DNA of 64,000 nt from Longimicrobiales bacterium (lineage in GTDB: Bacteria > Gemmatimonadota > Gemmatimonadetes > Longimicrobiales > Gaopeijiaceae), in contig OY282361.1 in NCBI GenBank assembly GCA_958295645.1, forward strand, positions 1,826,501-1,890,500, written 5' to 3'. A model generated the notes under the pieces. That model did no database searches, was not told the origin of the DNA, and saw nothing but the letters and a program-made list of their open reading frames with translations. Below are positions 6,952 through 19,544 of the stretch, piece after piece; position 1 is the stretch's first letter; every line of letters begins with the position of its first letter. The translations under genes were made by a program, and so were the position numbers.

Positions 6952-7099
6952 GCTTATAACACGGCTGTCGTCGTTCCGCCTTGCCCTTACAAGTCGGTCC
7001 GCGTGGGGAAAAAGTCACCTTCGATGTGGTTGCAAATGAGATAGATTATGTCTTGTCAATGACGTCAAGCTTGGCCCAGATGCCACTGGATTCCCTTAC
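6952..7099 (+). pseudogene. Truncated, frameshifted copy of the coiled-coil membrane protein gene at 11357
   Basis: Bases about 6985-7099 match 11428-11540 at roughly 88 percent identity by eye. Shared stretches include TGGGG followed by TCACCTTCGA, GAGATAGATTATG, TTGTCAATGACGTC and GATGCCACTGGATTCCCTTA. One extra base in the A-run after GTGGGG breaks the frame. Just upstream, 6952-6985 also resembles 11222-11256, so the copy includes part of the upstream region with an internal deletion. Similarity stops abruptly at 7099, where the SIR2-type remnant on the other strand begins. Confidence 0.75.
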
Positions 7100-7371
7100 A
7101 TCTCCAACAGGTCTCGAAGTTGCATAAGTGGCTTACCACTTTCCAGAGCTGCGTCAAACACTTCAGTCAGTTCTTCGTCTTTCGTATAGTCGCCACCTAG
7201 GTCCGCATAGTCGCACAACATCCGACCGAGCTCGTGTGCGCTCGGAATGGACGTACCTTGTCTATTAGTAGCCGATGTAGAAAAGCCAGCACCGACAAGA
7301 AAGACACACTGGTTTCGCGAAAGCGCTCGGACAAAAATACGGTCGATCTCGGTCGTCAGGTCGGAAGGCAA
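7096..7371 (-). pseudogene. SIR2-like defence protein, N-terminal remnant (truncated)
   Basis: The 91-codon frame starts at a TTG at 7371 and contains CVFLVGAGFSTSATN followed by IPSAHELGRMLCDYA. This is the glycine-rich nucleotide-binding start of SIR2-like NADase domains found in anti-phage proteins. The domain normally continues for another 150 residues or more. Here the frame is cut at 7096-7101, exactly where the duplicated fragment of the 11357 gene begins, so the stop codon is supplied by foreign sequence. The lower GC of this piece contrasts with flanking DNA. Bases 7372-7546 upstream show no gene. Confidence 0.6.
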
Positions 7372-7546
7372 GAGATGGACGCCCGTTGGTTCGTCGTTGT
7401 GGACGACGAGGAGGCTCTATAGGAAATCCCGAGCGCGCCGCAGGAGCGTTGGCCGCAACCCAGGCTAAGAGAGAGCTGAGGTGCTCAGCTACGGCCGCCG
7501 AAGCCGCTTCCTCCCAGACCTCTCACCCCCCACCTCCCCCCTGACG

Positions 7547-8400: not shown

Positions 8401-10287
8401 ATGTCCAAGACGTGCTTCTCCCGCCGACTCCTGGGTACGGCCTTCGCCGCCGCCAGCTGCCGCCTCGCGAATCGCTGTCTCGCCGCCGTCCGCGCGACCC
8501 GCCTCCTCGCCCCGCTGGCGATCCTCGCCGCTTCATCCGCGGCCCTTGCCGCCCAGCAGCTTCCACAGCTTCCGCCCAGCACCGAGTACGGCGAGTACGC
8601 CGTCGGCGTCGCCACCGGGTTCGCCGTGGACAACCGGCAACGCTTCGACCCGTGGAACGCCGCGTACGGCCGCCCGCAGTACCGAGCGCTTCTGCGCCGG
8701 ATCGAGGCCAGCAAGCAAGTTCGCACAGTCGTCTTCCAGCTCTGGTATCCCTCGGCGGCGGACAGCGCCAGCGGGCGGCTGGCGGGTCCCCGATCTCCTT
8801 TTCCGGCAACCAGCGGGCGGCGCGCCAACCGGTACGACTTCTTCTTCCAGGACCCGGCCATGGCGCTTCGGGCCACCGCGCCGATGATCGACCCCGGCGC
8901 GGTGCACTCGGCGGACGTCGGCGCGCTGGCGGAAGCAGACGGTCCGGTCCGGCAAGCGACCCTGGAGGAGCTGGCCGGGCGGCTGGCCGACTGGTCGCAA
9001 GGCGCTTCGCAGGACGCATGGCCCGCGCAGGGCTCGTTCCCGCTGGTGCTCCTGGCCCACGGACTGGGGGGCAACCACGGCATGTGGGGCTCGCTGGGCG
9101 AGTTCCTGGCTTCGCACGGCTACATCGTGGCGGCCCCCACCTTCGTGTCCGACGGCGCACCGGCCGTGGTCTTCCACGACGAGGACTCGCCCTACGCCGC
9201 GCAGGCCGGTGCAGGCGAGCTTCGGCGCGCCTACGACCTGCTCGCGGGCGAGTTCAAGGTGGTGCCCTACTTCTACCGCCTGCTGTTCGGATACGAGGGG
9301 CGCGACGGCTTCGCGTCGCTGGCGGCCTTCGACCCGAGCGCGGCGGAGGCCGTGCCCGGCGGGGTGGAGCGAACCACCACCATGATGCGCAACCTGTTCC
9401 GGCAACGGGTGTCCGACGTCGGCTTGGTGCTCCACACGGTGCGCCTGCTGGGCGAGGAGCGCGAAGAGTGCGCCGCGGGGCTTTCGGCGATGGGCGCCAC
9501 CAGCGCAGCGAGGGACCATTGCGGCTTGCTGGAGGGCCGGGTCGGCGACGGACCCGCGGGCGTGGCCGGGCATTCCCTAGGCTCCATGACGGCCCAGATG
9601 GCGGCGAACCACCTGCCCGGCGTGGCCGCGGCCGCCGGCTTCAACAACGGGCCTCCCTTGACTTGGACGCCCGAGGAGATGCTGGCGGGAGAAGAGACCG
9701 CCGGCGGTCTGCCGGGGGGCGCCCGCAAGCCGCTGCTTCTCGTGATCGGCGACGAGGACGCTTTCGTGCAGCGGGTCTTCTCCGGCCTCTTCCAGTCCGC
9801 TCTGGCCCAAGCCGGCGGCGACCCGGCGGAGGCGTTTCCGCTGGAGGCCGAGCGCGCCGCGCCCGATCGCATGGAGAACCCCCAGCCGGTGGCGCTGAGC
9901 ACGTGGCGGCGCGCCCTCTCCGACCGCGTCCTGGTGACCGTGCGGGACGTGGACCACGACGTCATGGTGAACGACTTCCCGCGCCTCCTGCCGTGGCCGG
10001 CCTTCCAACGAGGCGAACTCCCCTTCGGCGCCGCCCCCCGCCAGCGCCGCCGCAAGCCGACAGGCGCCGAAGCCCTGGCCACCCGTCCCGCACCGGGCGC
10101 ACCCTACGCTCTCCTGGGATGGGCCGCCGCGGGCTCAACCGACGCCTACCTGCCCCACGTCGTCCGCGACTGGTACGTGCGCGCCTGGTTCGACTGGCAC
10201 CTGAAGGGCGACCAGACGGCGCGCCAGCGGCTGGCCAACGGCGATCCCTTCGGAGATCTGACGGACGTGCGGACGGAGCTGAAGTAA
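8401..10287 (+). CDS. Secreted alpha/beta hydrolase (PAF-acetylhydrolase/lipase-like)
   Basis: This 628-residue protein has a long basic N-terminus followed by a hydrophobic stretch (LLAPLAILAASSAALAAQ) that looks like a signal peptide, so it is probably periplasmic. The alpha/beta-hydrolase core is seen as VVFQLWYPSA, then LVLLAHGLGGNHGMWGS (oxyanion HG). The nucleophile elbow is GHSLGSMTAQM near residue 395. LLLVIGDEDAF carries the probable acid, and VDHDVMVNDFP a candidate catalytic His. This matches large serine esterases of the PAF-acetylhydrolase/dienelactone-hydrolase type. The start could be a few codons downstream. It stands alone, convergent with the remnant at 10490. Substrate cannot be inferred. 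Confidence 0.75.
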   Translation: MSKTCFSRRLLGTAFAAASCRLANRCLAAVRATRLLAPLAILAASSAALAAQQLPQLPPSTEYGEYAVGVATGFAVDNRQRFDPWNAAYGRPQYRALLRRIEASKQVRTVVFQLWYPSAADSASGRLAGPRSPFPATSGRRANRYDFFFQDPAMALRATAPMIDPGAVHSADVGALAEADGPVRQATLEELAGRLADWSQGASQDAWPAQGSFPLVLLAHGLGGNHGMWGSLGEFLASHGYIVAAPTFVSDGAPAVVFHDEDSPYAAQAGAGELRRAYDLLAGEFKVVPYFYRLLFGYEGRDGFASLAAFDPSAAEAVPGGVERTTTMMRNLFRQRVSDVGLVLHTVRLLGEEREECAAGLSAMGATSAARDHCGLLEGRVGDGPAGVAGHSLGSMTAQMAANHLPGVAAAAGFNNGPPLTWTPEEMLAGEETAGGLPGGARKPLLLVIGDEDAFVQRVFSGLFQSALAQAGGDPAEAFPLEAERAAPDRMENPQPVALSTWRRALSDRVLVTVRDVDHDVMVNDFPRLLPWPAFQRGELPFGAAPRQRRRKPTGAEALATRPAPGAPYALLGWAAAGSTDAYLPHVVRDWYVRAWFDWHLKGDQTARQRLANGDPFGDLTDVRTELK

Positions 10288-10383: not shown

Positions 10384-10489
10384 CGATGTCCACGACGCTG
10401 TCTGCCTTCGTTCGAACCGGCGTCAGCGAGCCTCCCGGACCTGGGCACCGCGGCGCAAGCCAAACCCGCCAGCACGCAGACGACCTTGA
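10384..10489. repeat. Dispersed repeat, copy A
   Basis: About 105 bases here are similar to 15065-15171 in the same orientation. Both copies share ATGTCCACG, CGCTGTCT, TTCGA followed by CCGGCGTCAGCG, CGGCGCAAGCC or CCGCGCAAGCC, and CGCCAGCACGCAGACGACCTT at the right end. Both lie immediately downstream (minus-strand sense) of a minus-strand coding sequence. No transposase is associated. Confidence 0.65.
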
Positions 10490-10660
10490 CGTACGGCTGG
10501 CGCTCCAGCGTCATCGTGTCCCCGGTCCACTCCATGTAGTCGTTGAAGATCCGTTCGATCTCCTGCTCGCCGGCGGCACGCTGGTACCGCTTGAACCCCT
10601 CGCCCTGCCGTAAGCACTCCACTCCGGAAGCAGGCTCTTCAACGCGGCCAGGTCGTGGCG
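10490..10660 (-). pseudogene. C-terminal remnant of an unrecognised protein
   Basis: Protein-like sequence is read on the minus strand as RHDLAALKSLLPEWSAYG in one frame. After a shift it continues as GEGFKRYQRAAGEQEIERI, then NDYMEWTGDTMTLERQPYV up to the edge of repeat copy A. It resembles the charged helical end of a large nuclease or helicase-type protein, but I cannot name a family. The upstream part is absent, so only the tail survives. Confidence 0.35.
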
Positions 10661-11287: not shown

Positions 11288-11356
11288 GGGATAGAGAGGA
11301 TCCGCCAAGCACCACGACACCTTCCATCACCGCCACCCGTGAGCCGGAGCAATTCA

Positions 11357-12358
11357 GTGATTTCCAAAGAGACACTCGACAGCCTGAAGACTAACATCGC
11401 ATCCATCACGAAGTATCAAGACAGCTCCCTTACAAGCCGGCCCGAGTGGGGAACGATCACCTTCGACGTGGTTGCCGCCGAGATAGATTATGCCTTGTCA
11501 ATGACGTCGAGCTTGGCCGAGATGCCACTGGATTCCCTTACGGATATTGCTGCCTCAGAGCTGTTCAACAGCATGCCGGACGTCGCGCAATTGCTTGATC
11601 AGATTGACAGCTTTGACGTTGAACAGGGTAACGCTTCTGCCACGCGTGACGAAACCGCCAGAGGACTCAAGGATGCAGTAGTCTATATGCATGAGCAGTA
11701 CGGCAAGTGGCTTCCTTATCTGGCGTTTCGACGTGGCGATACTGATGCAAATATCAACAAACTCAAGGACGCCGTCTCAACGGCACAAGAAAAGATGAGT
11801 GAAGTAGAGTCGTACATGCGTCAAAAACAAGACGAGGTGGACAACATCGTTGCTGCGGCGCGTGAAGCGGCGGCAAGTGCTGGCGTCGCTACATTCACAC
11901 ATGCGTTTGATAAAGAAGCTGATAAACTAGCCGAGACGTCCTCGAATTGGTTTTGGGGAACAATCGGGTGTTCCGTCGGAACTGTCGTCGCGATTGTCCT
12001 TCTGTATTTTTGGCCAAGCCTTCCTGCCGACGCAGACAACTGGGCGATTGTGCGGAACGTGTTTATGAAAGTATCTGCTGTAGCTGTGTTGCTCAACGGG
12101 TCAGTGTGGTGTGCGCGGATGTACCGCGCACTAGCCCATCAAGCAACCACAAACCGCCACCGAGCTTTGAGCCTGCAAACATTTCAAGCATTTGCGAGTG
12201 CTACTGACGACGACAGGACGCGGGATGCGGTCTTGCTGGCGGCCACAAAATGCATCTTTGCAAATACTTCCACTGGTCTTGTGGAAGAAGGTGGAAGTGT
12301 CCAGGACCCATCCGTTCAGTTCATGGAAATCGGAAAGAAGTCTAGCGAAGTGTCGTGA
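11357..12358 (+). CDS. Low-GC coiled-coil protein with two transmembrane helices, unknown function
   Basis: I chose GTG 11357 over GTG 11339 because GGAG sits seven bases upstream of it; the product is 333 residues. The N-terminal 150 residues are acidic and helical. A coiled coil follows near residues 135-185 (NKLKDAVSTAQEKMSEVES and following), then two hydrophobic helices, WGTIGCSVGTVVAIVLLYFW and, 15 residues later, VFMKVSAVAVLLNGSV. A short cytoplasmic helical domain (RHRALSLQTFQAFASATDD) and a C-terminal tail complete it. This architecture, a coiled coil anchored by a two-helix hairpin, recurs in membrane-associated defence proteins, but I know no exact family. GC is clearly below that of neighbours and AT-ending codons are frequent, suggesting transfer. 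A broken second copy lies at 6952-7099. Confidence 0.8.
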   Translation: MISKETLDSLKTNIASITKYQDSSLTSRPEWGTITFDVVAAEIDYALSMTSSLAEMPLDSLTDIAASELFNSMPDVAQLLDQIDSFDVEQGNASATRDETARGLKDAVVYMHEQYGKWLPYLAFRRGDTDANINKLKDAVSTAQEKMSEVESYMRQKQDEVDNIVAAAREAAASAGVATFTHAFDKEADKLAETSSNWFWGTIGCSVGTVVAIVLLYFWPSLPADADNWAIVRNVFMKVSAVAVLLNGSVWCARMYRALAHQATTNRHRALSLQTFQAFASATDDDRTRDAVLLAATKCIFANTSTGLVEEGGSVQDPSVQFMEIGKKSSEVS

Positions 12359-12386: not shown

Positions 12387-13581
12387 TTAGCCTTCGGGTC
12401 GTGGTCGATGGCATCGCAGTACCATCCATGTTCGACGATAGTCAGCTTCCAGGTCGCAACACGTGAACGGCGCGTGGTAGTCCACCGTACGAGGAACCGG
12501 GCCGTCGGGAAGCGTATCGTCGGTGATCATGCGGCTGATGGTACCTGTCTGGAGGTTACAAACGTCTTCCCAGCCCAGAGAAACGGTGGAGCGGGTTCCG
12601 GTCGGCGCACGGATCGTGTAGCTCGTGTCGTTCTTGGCAGCCTTGCGGGGAAGGCCGACACGGGGCAGTCCCCTCGAAGCGTGAAGACGATGCGGCCGTT
12701 GGCGTCGTACCACGTGTCGGCTTCGTATTGGCGCAAGACGGGGAACTGGACTCGGTAGATGGTCAGTAGCTCTTCCAAGGTCAGGTCAAGGACCATTGCC
12801 GCCAGGACGTCGGTCTCCACGAGTGCTTGGCGGCGTACGTAGTCGGTTCGCAGGGCGGCGTCCCAACGCCAATCAGGGGTCAGCGTGCCAAAGTCGTTCG
12901 GGAGGCGGGAGTCGTCCTTCGCCCAGGCGTCCGCGCGCAAGCTGGTGATGGCGGGCGCAAGGGGCCGGAGACCAAGCACGCGCCGCGTCACCACATCCTC
13001 CAGTGCTCGTCCAGAAACGCAGGCAACGGAGGCGCCTCGCCGTGGAACTAGGCCCGGTGAAGCTTGATGGAGAGCGGATCGTCCCCCTCGGCGGCAGCGC
13101 CGTAGGCGTCCAGCACCAGCAACTGCGGCGCGCCCGAAGCGGCTCGGCCCGACGTAGCCCGTCCGGCGGCGCACAAAACGGGAATCTCGACGCCGTCGCC
13201 GAAGACGTGGTTGGCCGGCCGCCAGTCGTCCCCGTAGCCCAGCACCTGAAGAAAGCCACGGAACTAACGGCACTGCTCGGCGATCCGCTCGCTGTGGAGT
13301 TGGTGCACGGCCCGCCAGCCCGCTCGCCGCGCGAAGCCTTCGCGAAACCGCGTGTAGTCGCTACCCAGGGCGCGCAGGGATGCCGGGGGAGTCGCCGTCC
13401 GGCTGTTGGCGTCGGCAGAGCCGGTGCTGGCGCCGACGTCCCGGCCGCCCGTCGCCTCCTCCTGCCACCGCTTCACCGTGTCCTTGATGTCGCCGGTGAA
13501 GATCTCCGACAGATAGTGGTGGCTGTAGAACTCGTTCTCGTTGTGGATGCCGGCGAAGGTGGCGGCGGTGGCGAAGGCCAT
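12387..13581 (-). pseudogene. Eco57I-type restriction-modification/methylase protein, heavily degraded
   Basis: The start at ATG 13581 lies five bases after the Fic gene's stop. The N-terminal part is intact (HNENEFYSHHYLSEIFTGD). In-frame TAG codons interrupt it at about 13264 and 13045, where the reading would continue as [18 protein letters not shown] and [17 protein letters not shown] large central portion of the family, including the methylase motifs, is missing. The sequence resumes after a frameshift with the C-terminal part ([55 protein letters not shown]) and ends near 12387. These ends resemble large Eco57I-like N6-adenine methylase/endonuclease proteins of about 1400 residues. It is a clear pseudogene. 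Confidence 0.75.
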
Positions 13582-13586
13582 TCGGA

Positions 13587-14930
13587 TCAGGCCAGCCCGG
13601 CCCTGAACGCCTTCATCCGCTCCGTCCGCGCCCGGTAGCCGTCCGTCGTCCGCTCGACGAGGCCGACGTCGACCAGCCAGTTGAGGTCGCGGGTCAGCGT
13701 CTTGGTGGTCTTGCCGGCATACATCTGCGCTACCTTCGGAGCGAGCGTCGGGACGTCCCGCTTCTTGACCGGCGCTTCCGCTTGCGATAAAGAGAGCACG
13801 ACTTCCCGGCGACGGCGGGCCGCCGGGGTCTGCTTCTCGCGCCGGAACGTGTCAAAGACGAAGTGTTCCCAAGCCAGGCCCATCTGAACGCTCTCGACGT
13901 ACCTGCACTGCTCGGCGAGTCCGTCCACGAACCCTCGCAACGCGTACTCCGCGAACCCGAACACGTCGCCCCGCGCGTTGTCGCCCCCACTTCCCCTCAC
14001 CCGGCTGGACCTGGCCAGCTCCAGGTAGTACCGGCTGCGCGTGAGGTTGAAGTGGTTGCTCATCAGGTGCGCCGACGGCGACGGTATCCCGGCCCGGCCC
14101 AGCAGCATGAACTCGACGAGGCGCGCGGTCCGCCCGTTGCCGTCTCCGAACGGGTGAATCCAGGCAATGTAGAGATGGGCCAGGGTCGCCTTCAGGATGC
14201 CCTCGGCCATGCGGCGGCGGCGAGGGTCCTGAAAGGCGTTGTGCGTGGGGCGGCCGGAGGGCCTGCCGGCGACGTTCGCCGTGGAGTGGCCGGGGGTCGT
14301 CTCGGCGACGCTTCCGTCGGGGGCGTCGTTGGGTTCCGGCGAACCGGCCGATTCATGCGGGGCGGCCTCGGGGCCCGGCACGTCGTCCTCGTCCAGCCAG
14401 CGGCAGAGGCGGCTCAGCAGGTGGCCGCAGTCCTCTCTCGGCGCACCCGGGTACCGACCGACGCCGACCGGAAAGGCAGGCACTTCTCCCGGAACGACTC
14501 CCTCTCCCAGCTGCTCTTCCAGTCCCTTGAGCACCCGCCGGTTCGCGTCTGCGATCCAATCCGGCGTCAGCCGCGGGGGGGTTCCGCTCACAATCTCGCC
14601 GTGAATGTCCTTGTAGGCGTCCAAAATGTTGCGCACTTCCTGTTCCAAATACGTCCGCGACGGCGGCAGGTCGAGCGTCCCGTCCAGCGCTTGGGCCACC
14701 TGCTCCTCGGTCAGCGTGTTGTTCTCGATGGCGGTGGTCGCCTTCGCCCCTTTGACGAGGTACGTCCTGAAGAGCCCATAGGCGGCAGGGGGCGGCAGCA
14801 CGGCCCCCGCAACCTGCTCACAGAAGGCCACAGCCTGTCCCAGCAAGGACCACAGGCGTGGCGACGCCCGGTCGAAGTTGATCCTGAAGCTGATCCAAGG
14901 GTGGCTGGTCTCGTAGGCGCGAGGGGTCAT
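13587..14930 (-). CDS. Fic family protein (AMP-transferase fold)
   Basis: The 447-residue protein has the Fic core HPFGDGNGRTARLVEF near residues 260-275, matching HPFx[D/E]GNGRxxR with catalytic His. An N-terminal inhibitory motif, TTAIENNT, fits [S/T]xxxE[G/N], so the protein should be auto-inhibited by its own alpha-helix (class II). A low-complexity insertion of about 60 residues rich in Pro, Gly and Ser separates the N-terminal helices from the core. The C-terminus ends in a winged-helix-like segment (DLNWLVDVGLVERTTDGYRA). Fic enzymes transfer AMP or other nucleotides to target proteins. It is immediately upstream of the decayed Eco57I-type gene, so it may once have belonged to that system. 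Confidence 0.88.
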   Translation of the reverse strand: MTPRAYETSHPWISFRINFDRASPRLWSLLGQAVAFCEQVAGAVLPPPAAYGLFRTYLVKGAKATTAIENNTLTEEQVAQALDGTLDLPPSRTYLEQEVRNILDAYKDIHGEIVSGTPPRLTPDWIADANRRVLKGLEEQLGEGVVPGEVPAFPVGVGRYPGAPREDCGHLLSRLCRWLDEDDVPGPEAAPHESAGSPEPNDAPDGSVAETTPGHSTANVAGRPSGRPTHNAFQDPRRRRMAEGILKATLAHLYIAWIHPFGDGNGRTARLVEFMLLGRAGIPSPSAHLMSNHFNLTRSRYYLELARSSRVRGSGGDNARGDVFGFAEYALRGFVDGLAEQCRYVESVQMGLAWEHFVFDTFRREKQTPAARRRREVVLSLSQAEAPVKKRDVPTLAPKVAQMYAGKTTKTLTRDLNWLVDVGLVERTTDGYRARTERMKAFRAGLA

Positions 14931-15064
14931 TTCGGTACTGGTGGGTGTCTGCGGGCGCGGGGCGCACGGGATCGGCTAGGGCCGGGTCGGTGGATCCATC
15001 CGGTAAGTCGTTTCGGATTTCGAGTATCTGAAATGTCCCAACAAATGTCCCATTTCACAAGCCC

Positions 15065-15171
15065 AGATGTCCACGGCGCTGTCTCCCTTCCTTCGAGCCG
15101 GCGTCAGCGGGCCTTCCCAGACCCGTCCACCGCCGCGCAAGCCGACCCCCCGCCAGCACGCAGACGACCTT
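15065..15171. repeat. Dispersed repeat, copy B
   Basis: This is the second copy of the roughly 105-base element at 10384-10489, in the same orientation. It starts at ATGTCCACGGCGCTGTCT and ends at CGCAGACGACCTT, directly abutting the TAA stop codon of the Nmad2 gene. Internal differences include a C-run of six and a G/C-rich substitution in the middle. Confidence 0.65.
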
Positions 15172-16177
15172 AATGCTTCTCCAGGAAGACCGCTTCCCGC
15201 TGCCTGTCGCCTGGCCGTCGAGACCCGTCCAGCGCTTGCGCCAGCCGCATGGCCAGACCCTCCGCGTCCGCCGCGAACACCCGCCAGCCGGCCTTCTCGA
15301 ACGACGCCCTGTCGCTCTCGCCTTCGGGACGCAATACCGCGACCCCTTGCGCGGGCCACCCCAGCTCGGCTTCGGCCACGACCCGCCCGCCGACGACGAG
15401 TTCGCATCCAACCTCGGGAGCGGGATGGCCGGCTGCCGCGAGGAACTCCACCAACGGCCGCAAGCTCGGCGCAACGTAGCGCTCGGCTGCAGCCCAATCC
15501 TCCAACAGCGCAAGGCGGCGAGGCACCGTGGACGTTTCCGCGAGGTCCCCGACACGAGACGCGGCAGACGATCGCGACCCGCATCCGCCGCCTAGCCGGG
15601 ATTTCCGGTCCAGCGAATCCCCCCGAACGCCGTACTCTCCCCGGCCCCGCAGGGAGTGGTACCAGTCCAGGAATCCAGGCGCCAGCTCCCTGTTCTTGTC
15701 GCGGTTGTGGCCCGGCCCCTGACGCACGATTCCCGAGTACTCGGCCGGTACCCGGGGCCCGTCGCCGCCCCAATAGGTAAACAGATGGCCGACGAGCACT
15801 CTGTCGACGTCGGTGTCGCGCGAGATGTCGGCGCAGTCATGGTGGGGATTCGGCAGTTGGTCCCACTCCCGGACACCGGTTCTGCGATAGATGTTGTCCC
15901 CGTCCGCCCTCTCGTCCCGAGCGTCCACGACCGGCTTCTTGGCTTGAAGCCTCCGGTCGTGCCAATAGGCGTTCCACGTCAGTATCTCGTCCACACGCAT
16001 GACGTAGATCAGACAACCAGCTCGGCCCTTCGATGCGCTGCCGAAGCCGGCGATGTAGTCGCCTTTCTGCGCCGTCTTGCGGATCTTCGGCTTGCATGTC
16101 GCCAGCGTGCAGGCGCCGTGATAAGGGTTGGGCGCAAAGCCGGTGTCGTAGCGTACGACGTAGGAGTACAGATCCAT
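15170..16177 (-). CDS. Nmad2 (nucleotide modification associated domain 2) protein with extra C-terminal domain
   Basis: The 335-residue protein begins with MDLYSYVVRYDTGFAPNP, HGACTLATCKPKIRKTA and GDYIAGFGS. It continues with YVMRVDEILTWNAYW, GDNIYRR and LVGHLFTYWGGDGP. This is the conserved course of the Nmad2 domain (residues 1 to about 185), predicted to act in DNA base modification systems. After a Ser/Arg/Gly-rich linker, residues about 215-310 form a second domain (LEDWAAAERYVAPSLRPLVE, ELVVGGRVVAEAELGWPAQG, FEKAGWRVFA). Its layout recalls the end of helicase or Vsr/DUF559-type nuclease proteins. The stop codon touches repeat copy B. A nucleotide-modification role is inferred from the family; the fusion may be secondary. 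Confidence 0.75.
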   Translation of the reverse strand: MDLYSYVVRYDTGFAPNPYHGACTLATCKPKIRKTAQKGDYIAGFGSASKGRAGCLIYVMRVDEILTWNAYWHDRRLQAKKPVVDARDERADGDNIYRRTGVREWDQLPNPHHDCADISRDTDVDRVLVGHLFTYWGGDGPRVPAEYSGIVRQGPGHNRDKNRELAPGFLDWYHSLRGRGEYGVRGDSLDRKSRLGGGCGSRSSAASRVGDLAETSTVPRRLALLEDWAAAERYVAPSLRPLVEFLAAAGHPAPEVGCELVVGGRVVAEAELGWPAQGVAVLRPEGESDRASFEKAGWRVFAADAEGLAMRLAQALDGSRRPGDRQREAVFLEKH

Positions 16178-16327
16178 GTAGGCCTCGTTCCGCGTGTGGG
16201 TAAGTTGCGCGGGTCGGGAAAGTTACACGGACTTCGCGCCATCGTCCACGCCGACGCCGGGGGTGTCGCGCCAGCAGTAGATTGACTTGGCGCCTCCGTT
16301 CCCTTCTCCCACCTCGACCCCACCGCC

Positions 16328-19300
16328 ATGCACAACGTCCGACTCTCCCTTCGCCTCCTCCCCCTGGCCCTCTTCCCTCTCGCTGCGGCCACGTTCTTCG
16401 CGTTCGCAACCGCGCCCGCAGCCGCGCTCGCGTCCTCGTCCCGTCCCGCCATTGCGCAGGCCCAGCCTCCCGTCGCTCCTTCCGACTTCGCCGTCATGAA
16501 GGCGCGGAGCATCGGGCCGGCCGGAATGAGCGGGCGGGTCTCGGCCGTGGCGGTCAACCTGGACGACCCGACCATCATGTACGTCGGGGCCGCGACGGGG
16601 GGCGTCTGGCGGTCGCGCGACGGGGGGCTCGCCTGGCATCCGGTCTTCGATGAGCAGGCGGTGCTCGGGATCGGGGCGGTGGCGGTGGCGGCGTCCAATC
16701 CGGACGTGGTCTGGGTGGGGACGGGCGAGGGGAATCCGCGCAACTCGGCGGGGGTCGGCGCCGGGGTGTACCGGAGTCTGGACGGGGGCGACACGTGGCG
16801 GCGCATGGGACTGGAGGAGTCGGAGCGGATTCACCGCGTGGTGATTCATCCGGACGATCCTCGGACCGTGTACGTGGGCTCGATGGGGCCGGCCTGGAGC
16901 GACGGGGAGCAGCGGGGCGTGTACAAGACGACGGACGGGGGCGAGACCTGGGAGCGCGTGCTGTACGTGGACGCGGGGACGGGGGTGGCCGATCTGGTCA
17001 TGGACCCGGCCAACCCGGACAAGCTGTTTGCGGCGATGTGGTCGTTCAGGCGGTGGCCGTGGTTCTTCCGCTCGGGAGGGCCTGGGAGCGGCCTCTTCGT
17101 CACGCACGACGCGGGCGAGAACTGGACGCAGCTCGGGCCGGAAGACGGGTTGCCTGAGGGCGAGCTGGGCCGCATCGGCGTGGCGGTGTCGCGATCCGAC
17201 CCGGAGGTGGTCTACGCCTTGGTGGAAGCGGAGCGCAGCGAACTCCTTCGCTCGGACGACGGGGGCGCAAGCTGGCGCACCATCAGCGACGAGCCTGGGA
17301 TCGCGCCAAGGCCCTTCTACTACGCCGACATTCGCGTCGACCCGGCGAACGAGAACCGCCTCTACAGCCTGCACAGCGCGATTCGGGTCAGCGAGGACGC
17401 GGGGCGGACGTTCCGCACGGTGGTCCCCAGCCGCATCATCCATGGCGACGTCCACGAGCTGTGGATTCATCCGGACGACGGGCGCTTCATGATCATCGGC
17501 GAGGACGGCGGCATCGCGGTCACGCGCGACCGGGGCGAGAACTGGCGCTTCGTCGAGAATCTTCCGCTGGCGCAGTTCTACCACGTCAACGTGGACATGG
17601 CGGCGCCGTTCAATGTCTACGGGGGACTGCAGGACAACGGGTCGTGGTTCGGCCCCAGCACCGTCTGGGCGCAGCGCGGCATCATGAATCTGCACTGGAC
17701 CCGGGTCGGCGGCGGCGACGGCTTCGCCACCCTCCCGGACTTCCAAGACGACCGCTACGGCTATTCCATGTCCCAACAGGGCAACCTAGTGCGATTCGAC
17801 AAGGCCACGGGCAACCGCCGCGACATCAAGCCGGTGCATCCCGACGGCACGCGGCTGCGCTTCAGCTGGAACGCGGCGCTCGACCATCTACCTGGGCTCC
17901 CAGTTCGTGCACCGGTCCCGCGACGGAGGCGCCACCTGGGAGATCATCTCGCCCGATCTCACCACCAACGATCCCGAGAAGCAGCGGCGGGACCAAAGCG
18001 GCGGGCTGTCCATGGACGCCACCGGGGCCGAGAACCACACGACGATCCTGAGCATCGCTCCCAGCCCACTGGAGCGGGGACTGATCTGGGCGACGACCGA
18101 CGACGGCGCCGTTCAGATCACCCGAGACGACGGCGCGACCTGGACCGACGTGGGAGACCGCGTCCCGGAGGTGCCCGACGCGACTTGGGCGCCTCACCTG
18201 GAGCCCTCGAAGCACGATCCGGCCCGCGCCTACCTCGTTTACGACGACCACCGGCGGGGCAACTGGACGCCCTACGCCTACCGCACGGACGACTACGGGC
18301 GGAGTTGGCGCTCGGTCGCCGGGGGCATCCGCGGGTTCGTGCACGTGATCGAGGAGGACCCCGTGGAGCCCAACCTGCTGTTCCTGGGGACCGAGTTCGG
18401 CCTGTATGCGAGCCTGGGCGGGGGCGGCTCCTGGATGCCGTGGAGCGCCGGCCTGCCCCCGGCGCCGGTTCGGGCGCTCGTGGTCCATCCGCGGGACCAC
18501 GATCTCGTCGTCGGGACGCACGGTCGGGCGGCGTACGTGATCGACGACGTTCGCCCGTTGCGCGTTCTGGCCGCGGAGCCGGCGGCCGCCGAAGAAGGGC
18601 TTCGGGTCTTCCCGGCGGCGCCGGCGATCCAGTACGTCGAGGCCGAGGCGCAGGGCTACAGGTCCACGGGCCACGCAATGTTCATGGGGGACTTGCGGCC
18701 CTTCGGAGCCTTGATCCACTACTGGATGGCGGCGGGGGACGAATCGGGCGGCGACGCGGCCCGCATATCCATTCTCGACGCTTCCGGCGCCGTGGTGCGC
18801 GTGCTCTCTGGCACGGCCGAACGAGGCCTGAACCGGGCGGTCTGGGACTTGCGCATGGCCTTGCCGGACGAGGAAACGGGCGGCGAAGCAGGCATGGACG
18901 CCCAACGGGCAGGCCAGGCGGCCGGCGCCATGCCTGGACGGGGCGAACTCGGACCAGACTCGCCAACCGGACCATGGGTGTTGGCAGGCCGGTACGGAGT
19001 GCGGGTCGAGGCCGCGGGTCACGTCGCGGAGGGCAGCGTGGAGGTCGTCGCCGATCCGCGCCTCGACATCTCCGAGTCCGACCGCCGCGCGCGGATCGCG
19101 GTTCAGGTCGAAGCGGCCCGTCGGAACCTAGCGGCGTCCCACGCCTCGCGCCGTCTTTCCAGCATGATCGACGCGGTGGACCACGTGCTCGCGTCGCTCC
19201 CCGGCGACGACGATGCAGCCGACCTTCGCGAGCAGGGCCAGGAGTTGCGCCGCACGCTTGCCGCCTTGAACGAACGGCTGTTCGCCGGGCCGGCCTGCCA

Positions 19301-19544
19301 GGGCATCTGCGGAGGCACGACCGTCGCCGACCGAGTCCGCGCGCCCCTGCGCAAGCTGAACAGCGCTCTCGACGCCCCGACCGCCACCGACCGCCTGGCC
19401 ATTTCGCACGCCGAAGCTGCCTTGGAGGAGCTCCGAACGGCGCTCGCCTCGGCGATGGACGGGCCGGTCGAAGCCTTCCGCCAAGCACTAGCGGCCGCCG
19501 GCTACGACCCCTTGCCCGGAGGGACGGGACCGGCCCGGCAATAA
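16328..19544 (+). pseudogene. Sortilin/VPS10-type BNR-repeat propeller exoprotein, split by a frameshift
   Basis: The start at 16328 gives a signal peptide (hydrophobic to about residue 35), then repeated BNR/Asp-box motifs (SRDGGLAW, TTDGGETWERV, THDAGENW, TRDRGENWRF) of a multi-bladed propeller. At about 17880-17890 the frame breaks: FSWNAAL is followed by out-of-frame sequence. The expected continuation (TIYLGSQFVHRSRDGGATWE, then PDLTTNDPE) lies in the next frame and runs to 19544. Compared with relatives, about seven codons are missing at the break. The joined protein would be close to the 1,024 residues of the intact paralogue at 51278-54352. Whether the break is biological or a consensus error cannot be told here. 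Confidence 0.8.

What the first reader, a model, noticed from the sequence alone, without database searches (positions are those of the whole stretch)
15170..16177. Nmad2 domain joined to a domain resembling a helicase or nuclease tail
The second domain (GRVVAEAELGWPAQGVAVL, then FEKAGWRVFA) looks like the C-terminus of a larger DNA-acting enzyme. The Ser/Arg/Gly-rich junction suggests a recent fusion, perhaps by deletion between neighbouring genes of a modification-restriction system.
Basis: partly seen in the sequence, partly recalled or inferred. Interest (0 to 1): 0.5.

Follow-up and report, generated by a model that had tools for sequence, protein, structure and literature searches.

The report
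Nmad2 fused to ARMADA helicase tail
This gene looks like a leftover of two broken phage-defence systems: one small complete protein has been joined in frame to the very end of a giant helicase, most likely by DNA loss inside a decaying defence island.

Summary
Confirmed: window 15170-16177 (-) is one open frame of 335 codons. Residues 3-176 match Pfam Nmad2 (E 2.4e-52). Residues about 215-327 match, in frame, the last ~120 residues of a 2,124-2,169-residue DEAD/Zn-binding helicase. That helicase fits ArmC of ARMADA Type II, a DISARM-related anti-phage system (PMC12458937); the tail is its terminal, catalytically dead Vsr-type domain. Remnants of ArmA, ArmB (about 1,290 codons lost) and ArmD and an intact Fic gene lie within 9 kb; a genome of the same family carries all of these at full length. 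The fusion's stop codon is made by out-of-frame ArmA DNA. No other fusion was seen in 88 Nmad2 homologues read to their stops or in 120 other genomes of the family. Nmad2 normally sits in a TIR-Nmad2-MazG operon; this genome has no TIR (ThsB) or MazG_C match. Best reading: a deletion or rearrangement scar between two neighbouring defence systems, probably without function. Side result: Nmad2 is predicted to be YTH/ASCH/EVE-like, possibly a reader of modified bases (suggestive only).

The parts
15608..16177 (-). Nmad2 domain, aa 1-190, essentially full length
   Evidence: PF18753 E 2.4e-52; 45 of 50 columns that are at least 90% conserved in 80 homologues are kept
15536..15607 (-). junction / linker, aa 191-214; the Nmad2-ArmC breakpoint lies in here
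   Evidence: Nmad2 homologues end at about aa 190-205; the ArmC match starts at 15535
15173..15535 (-). C-terminal domain of an ArmC (YprA-like) helicase, aa 215-335; the last residues go beyond the end of ArmC homologues
   Evidence: ArmC_G160 aa 2047-2169, 47%, E 2.6e-21; ArmC_G057 42%
15170..15172 (-). TAA stop, lying in out-of-frame ArmA DNA (ATT AAG)
   Evidence: sequence
15066..15171 (-). last codons (KVVCVLAG) and 3' flank of an armA gene, repeat of 10385-10487
13587..14930 (-). intact Fic-family gene, SoFic-like in PADLOC
   Evidence: PF02661 E 6.3e-11; PADLOC SoFic E 1e-42; 84% identical to the Fic between ArmA and ArmB in G160
12417..13581 (-). armB (PglX-like methyltransferase) pseudogene: head and tail with about 1,290 codons missing and a frame change
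   Evidence: ArmB_G160 aa 1-181, 1473-1582, 1570-1654 in different frames
10464..10655 (-). armA (SNF2-type helicase) C-terminal remnant
   Evidence: ArmA_G160 aa 875-934, 59%, E 8e-16
7336..7546 (+). armD (UvrD/GajB-like) fragments
   Evidence: ArmD_G160 aa 247-284 at 7336-7452, aa 742-763 at 7481-7546; DNA 78-84% to G160 at 7390-7546

Best explanation
The ORF is a chimeric relic gene. An Nmad2 gene (from a TIR-Nmad2-MazG defence operon) and the armC gene of an ARMADA Type II system were brought together by loss or rearrangement of the DNA between them. One breakpoint fell at the end of Nmad2, the other in the linker before the last domain of ArmC, and the frame happened to be kept. A second joint just after the ArmC end brings in the 3' end of armA, whose out-of-frame codons supply the stop. 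Shown: identity of both halves, their common frame, remnants of all four Arm genes nearby, absence of Nmad2's usual partners, no other copy in the sets searched. Inferred: deletion as the physical mechanism, and that the product is at most a leftover. If it is still made, it most likely folds as an Nmad2 domain (predicted YTH/EVE-like nucleic-acid binder) with a nuclease-dead Vsr-type appendage, without TIR effector, helicase motor or methyltransferase, so it should not defend the cell by either parent mechanism.
For: Nmad2 half and ArmC half in one frame. ARMADA II gene set intact and in order in G057, full length but split in two blocks in G160 of the same family. ArmA, ArmB, ArmD remnants with visible internal loss in ArmB. 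Island DNA shared with G160 at 75-95% in shuffled order. No other ArmC in the genome. No ThsB_TIR or MazG_C match in the genome, with MazG_C found in both other family members that have Nmad2. All 80 genomic and 8 viral Nmad2 homologues stand alone; 1 of 121 family genomes has the fusion.
Against: The ancestral order Nmad2 then armC on one strand was not found in any relative; only a distant analogue (L050). The frame is intact and most conserved Nmad2 residues are kept, unlike ArmB next door, which would also fit a gene still in use. The ArmC tail is only 47-50% identical to that of G160, so the true parent gene is unknown. No read-level check of the assembly was possible.
Confidence: 0.78

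Rival explanations
1. A functional new two-domain protein: the fusion is kept because the ArmC terminal domain gives Nmad2 a DNA- or partner-binding surface, a reader plus nuclease-fold protein shaped like a modification-dependent restriction enzyme but without catalysis of its own.
For: Intact frame and coding-like composition throughout; Nmad2 keeps 45 of 50 conserved columns; Nmad2 is predicted to be YTH/ASCH/EVE-like, and PUA-type reader plus nuclease is a known architecture (PMC7897488, start of abstract only).
Against: Seen once only; operon partners missing; tail lacks the acidic/Gly motif of the active Vsr domain; tail predicted with low confidence; neighbours are pseudogenes.
Confidence: 0.1
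2. Not a deletion but an insertion or capture: a fragment of armC was copied or moved to the end of an unrelated Nmad2 gene by recombination or a mobile element.
For: Two ArmA 3' ends in the window and duplicated ArmA/Fic pieces in G160 show copying and shuffling of fragments; ARMADA itself is not described with Nmad (0 occurrences in PMC12458937).
Against: No full ArmC remains in the genome as a donor; internal loss is directly seen in ArmB.
Confidence: 0.22
3. Assembly error joining two loci.
For: Repeats and paralogous fragments lie close by.
Against: The genome is a single 2.89 Mb contig, 95.7% complete; the joint is in frame and inside a region of matching remnants.
Confidence: 0.04

Closest known systems
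Nmad2 (Pfam PF18753) of TIR-Nmad2-MazG operons
   Same: N-terminal 190 residues are a full Nmad2 domain
   Different: Homologues stand alone at 188-237 codons; here a 120-residue foreign tail is added and TIR and MazG_C are gone
ArmC of ARMADA Type II (YprA-like helicase, PMC12458937)
   Same: C-terminal ~120 residues match the last, inactivated Vsr-type domain
   Different: About 2,040 residues of helicase core, Zn-binding module and active Vsr domain are missing
Modification-dependent restriction enzymes such as VcaM4I (EVE-HNH)
   Same: Order of parts: predicted PUA-type domain, then a nuclease-fold domain; VcaM4I is listed by Foldseek (E 0.18)
   Different: The nuclease-fold part is of Vsr type and appears catalytically dead; reader function untested
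DISARM class 1 helicase DrmA with N-terminal EVE-like domain
   Same: Joins a modified-base-reader type domain to YprA-family helicase parts (PMC12458937 section 9); DrmAB is listed by Foldseek (E 0.061)
   Different: Here no helicase core is present

Membership tests
Nmad2 (PF18753) | Sequence match over the curated cut-off | tested here: met
   177.8 bits against 26.1, profile 4-185 of 200
Nmad2 (PF18753) | Conserved residues kept | tested here: met
   45 of 50 columns conserved in at least 90% of 80 homologues; the homologues miss 2.1 on average
TIR-Nmad2-MazG operon | TIR and MazG_C genes beside Nmad2 | tested here: not met
   No seed match beside it in the window; no ThsB_TIR or MazG_C match in the whole genome; MazG_C control positive in 2 of 5 Nmad2 genomes
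ARMADA Type II | All four genes ArmA, ArmB, ArmC, ArmD (each needed in E. coli, PMC12458937 section 6) | tested here: not met
   Only remnants of each in the window; no other ArmC in the genome
ArmC (YprA-like helicase) | DEAD helicase core and Zn-binding (MZB/DUF1998) module | tested here: not met
   No such Pfam match in the ORF; only ArmC aa 2047-2169 aligned
ArmC (YprA-like helicase) | Terminal inactivated Vsr-type domain | tested here: met
   47% identity to ArmC_G160, E 2.6e-21; Vsr label taken from PMC12458937, not independently proved; fold model of the tail is of low confidence
Modification-dependent restriction enzyme | PUA-superfamily reader domain | tested here: inconclusive
   Foldseek rows mostly ASCH/YTH/EVE, best of these E 0.061; VIA Z 8.8 over 131 residues at 3.4 A
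Modification-dependent restriction enzyme | Catalytically competent nuclease domain | tested here: not met
   Motif of the upstream Vsr domain (D-G-W/F) absent from the tail in the alignment of five ArmC homologues and in the window

The most novel reading that the evidence does not exclude
The chimera is expressed and useful: a YTH/EVE-like modified-base reader (Nmad2) carrying ArmC's terminal Vsr-type domain, a modified-DNA-binding protein newly built from the ruins of two defence systems, and so an early step on the route by which modification-dependent nucleases or DISARM-type reader-helicases arise.
Probability: 0.1. Interest if true: 0.6.

Novelty: new variant of a known kind. Interest (0 to 1): 0.33.

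Why it matters
It is a worked example of how domain fusions arise in defence islands: an in-frame scar between two recognisable systems, with full-length counterparts of the ARMADA Type II genes in a related genome. It also shows what Nmad2 normally travels with (TIR and MazG_C) and suggests a fold that would make a role as reader of modified nucleotides testable. The fusion by itself is probably without function.

Tried and rejected
Genome-contig scan with the full fusion gave 45 pattern hits and no relative; tail searched in the wrong frame (my slip); its hits in 28 genomes are disregarded; no tail match in 72,556 plasmid records; 15 plasmid records match the Nmad2 half; seen as a listing only; no NCBIfam match for the fusion; one viral hit (L130), whose ORFs read as phage structural genes, dropped; no viral relative of the ArmC tail. 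In reading I first thought the 15066-15171 repeat might be a mobile element; it is ArmA 3'-end DNA. Nmad2 as an ARMADA component: rejected, ArmC/YprA in 1 of 89 Nmad2 loci, 0 'Nmad' in PMC12458937. A weak ArmD match at 14432-14172 (E 8e-5) lies inside the Fic gene and was left out; no PDB sequence match for the ArmC tail profile. Loci L029 and L030, fetched for the weak tail hits, showed no recognisable Arm-type gene row and were not searched further. In one search one of 89 Nmad2 loci (L139) was dropped (frame under 170 codons or an unknown base). Alignment A5 used 80 of the 88 homologues, A6 63 of 88; no promoter- or terminator-like site at 14900-16500.

Papers: PMC12458937 read as abstract, sections 5-9 and passages; PMC13192584, PMC13092281, PMC11846954 (about Nmad5), PMC9503650 and PMC7641849 as passages only; PMC7897488 as the start of its abstract in a listing. 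Searches in this library listed no paper that I recognised as treating an Nmad2-ArmC fusion or the Nmad2 fold; supplements and papers outside the library were not seen. That the PADLOC 2023 library predates the ARMADA name is my inference.

Full report
What is there. Window 15170-16177 on the minus strand is one open frame of 335 codons. Residues 3-176 match Pfam Nmad2 with E 2.4e-52. Searched alone in the right frame against 395 genomes of the phylum, the tail (aa 200-335) matches 5 genomes including its own; the two strongest others are the C-termini of giant open frames, G160 (50%, E 5.6e-23) and G057 (39%, E 6.8e-8), and two are weak (G310, G169). An earlier search in a wrong frame is disregarded. 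The ArmC match starts at aa 215 and runs in the ORF's own frame, so the fusion is real and in frame. The ORF's frame has the best codon score of the six in every window inside it. The halves differ in base composition: 64% G+C for Nmad2, 71% for the tail.

What the tail is. The giant proteins (2,169 and 2,124 aa) score as DruE-like in PADLOC; the one of G057, scanned with Pfam, has DEAD, Helicase_C and MZB (MrfA Zn-binding) domains. In G057 the row is SNF2/DrmD-like helicase, 1,671-aa methyltransferase, giant helicase, UvrD/GajB-like helicase, all on one strand. Only the G057 giant helicase was scanned; that of G160 is its full-length tblastn match (37-39% identity). This gene set and order is what PMC12458937 (abstract and sections 5-9 read) names ARMADA Type II: ArmA, ArmB, ArmC, ArmD. 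The assignment rests on gene set, order and the paper's text; I had no ARMADA models to test it. The paper says that Type II ArmC proteins often carry inactivated EEP and Vsr domains after the predicted active Vsr domain. The window's tail fits the last of these: it shares the AEAELAW ... AVL ... AGW pattern of five ArmC homologues, and where the upstream Vsr domain has a D-G motif in the same alignment the tail has none. Its predicted order of helices and strands (H E E E H E H) fits a PD-(D/E)xK core, but at low confidence.

What surrounds it. Mapping Arm proteins of G160 and G057 onto the window finds ArmB residues 1-181 at 13581-13000, 1473-1582 at 12973-12641 and 1570-1654 at 12680-12426 in another frame: about 1,290 codons are gone and the rest is frameshifted. 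ArmA residues 875-934 lie at 10655-10464, short ArmD pieces at 7336-7546, and a Fic gene at 13587-14930 that is 84% identical to the one between ArmA and ArmB in G160. At DNA level stretches of the region are 75-95% identical to G160 in shuffled order; the ArmC tail is 70%. G160, of the same family, holds ArmA, Fic and ArmB on one strand and ArmC and ArmD on the other, at full length. Right after the fusion's last codons the DNA encodes, in another frame, IKVVCVLAG, the C-terminus of ArmA; the fusion's TAA is part of those codons. So at least two joints bound the ArmC tail.

What Nmad2 normally travels with. All 80 genomic homologues stop 188-237 codons after the match start, median 203; the 8 of 9 viral ones that passed a length filter are of like size. 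A tight same-strand upstream neighbour could be called in 54 of 89 loci, of which 42 match ThsB_TIR; a downstream one in 32 of 89, of which 22 match MazG_C. By tblastn with three seeds each, 72 of 89 loci hold a TIR relative, 57 a MazG_C relative, 79 one or both. The two other Nmad2 genomes of the window's family both have MazG_C within about 1.5 kb of Nmad2. The window's own genome matches neither family, so Nmad2 here is an orphan. ArmC/YprA relatives occur in 1 of 89 loci: in a Gallionella contig (L050) MazG_C, Nmad2, TIR_2, a YprA-type helicase with C-terminal DUF559 and an SNF2 helicase lie in one row on one strand. That is the geometry a deletion would need, but in a distant organism and with another helicase subtype.

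Uniqueness. Of 121 genomes of the family only the window's own has the fusion; G275 and G069 have Nmad2 alone and G160 the full ArmC. The scan with the fusion found nothing. Nmad2 was found in 6 of 390 genomes of the phylum; the five others show no ArmC-like tail on reading. No metagenome scan was available, so rarity is shown only for the collections searched.

Fold of Nmad2. AF2 gives mean pLDDT 91.7 for the Nmad2 half alone. Foldseek's two best rows are an ATP sulfurylase (E 0.014 and 0.05), followed mostly by ASCH, YTH and EVE proteins, with DrmAB and VcaM4I among them; none is under E 0.001. VIA-align puts YTHDC1 first, Z 8.8 over 131 residues at 3.4 A, and the 50 rows shown are YTH domains as far as their labels and residue ranges tell. 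The tool's own note warns that a best Z of 7 to 8 is typical for models without a clear match. So this is suggestive, not proof. If right, Nmad2 would be a candidate reader of modified nucleotides.

Interpretation. The simplest history is a decayed island in which a TIR-Nmad2-MazG operon and an ARMADA Type II system lay side by side, and loss or rearrangement of the DNA between them fused Nmad2 in frame to the last domain of ArmC. Internal loss is directly visible in ArmB; for the fusion itself the ancestral arrangement was not found, so capture of an ArmC fragment remains possible. The intact frame and the kept Nmad2 residues (45 of 50) leave room for a product that is still made; the single occurrence, missing partners and dead nuclease motif argue against function. 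Both halves are known families; only the joint is new.

Noticed in passing
window 15608-16177; models m8e3ccbb3cf1b and m6c0973079e88: The Nmad2 domain is predicted with high confidence and its nearest solved folds are YTH, ASCH and EVE domains, i.e. readers of modified bases; individual Foldseek E-values are not significant.
   Followed up: partly
L048-L127, L134-L142: Nmad2 is usually flanked by a ThsB-type TIR gene and a MazG/MazG_C gene: 79 of 89 loci hold one or both. This looks like a defence operon of its own.
   Followed up: partly
L050:7529-20573: Gallionella contig with MazG_C, Nmad2, TIR_2, a YprA-type helicase with DUF559 tail and an SNF2 helicase in one row on one strand.
   Followed up: partly
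window 13587-14930 and L046:6611-7891: A Fic-family gene sits between ArmA and ArmB in G160 and next to their remnants in the window, 84% identical; Fic is not mentioned in the ARMADA paper's main text.
   Followed up: partly
window 7006-7099 and 11448-11541: Direct repeat, 87% identical, apparently two copies of a gene of the 339-aa coiled-coil type ORF at 11339-12358 (+), one of them broken.
   Followed up: no
window 8401-10287: Hydrolase-like gene 95% identical in DNA to G160 although it sits between shuffled island pieces.
   Followed up: no
window 16328-19544: A gene with BNR/sortilin-like repeats seems split by a frame change near 17870-17910; real or sequencing error is not known.
   Followed up: no
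L046:8004-9372: In G160 a second ArmA C-terminal piece and a short Fic piece lie between ArmA and Fic, signs of tandem duplication and loss.
   Followed up: no
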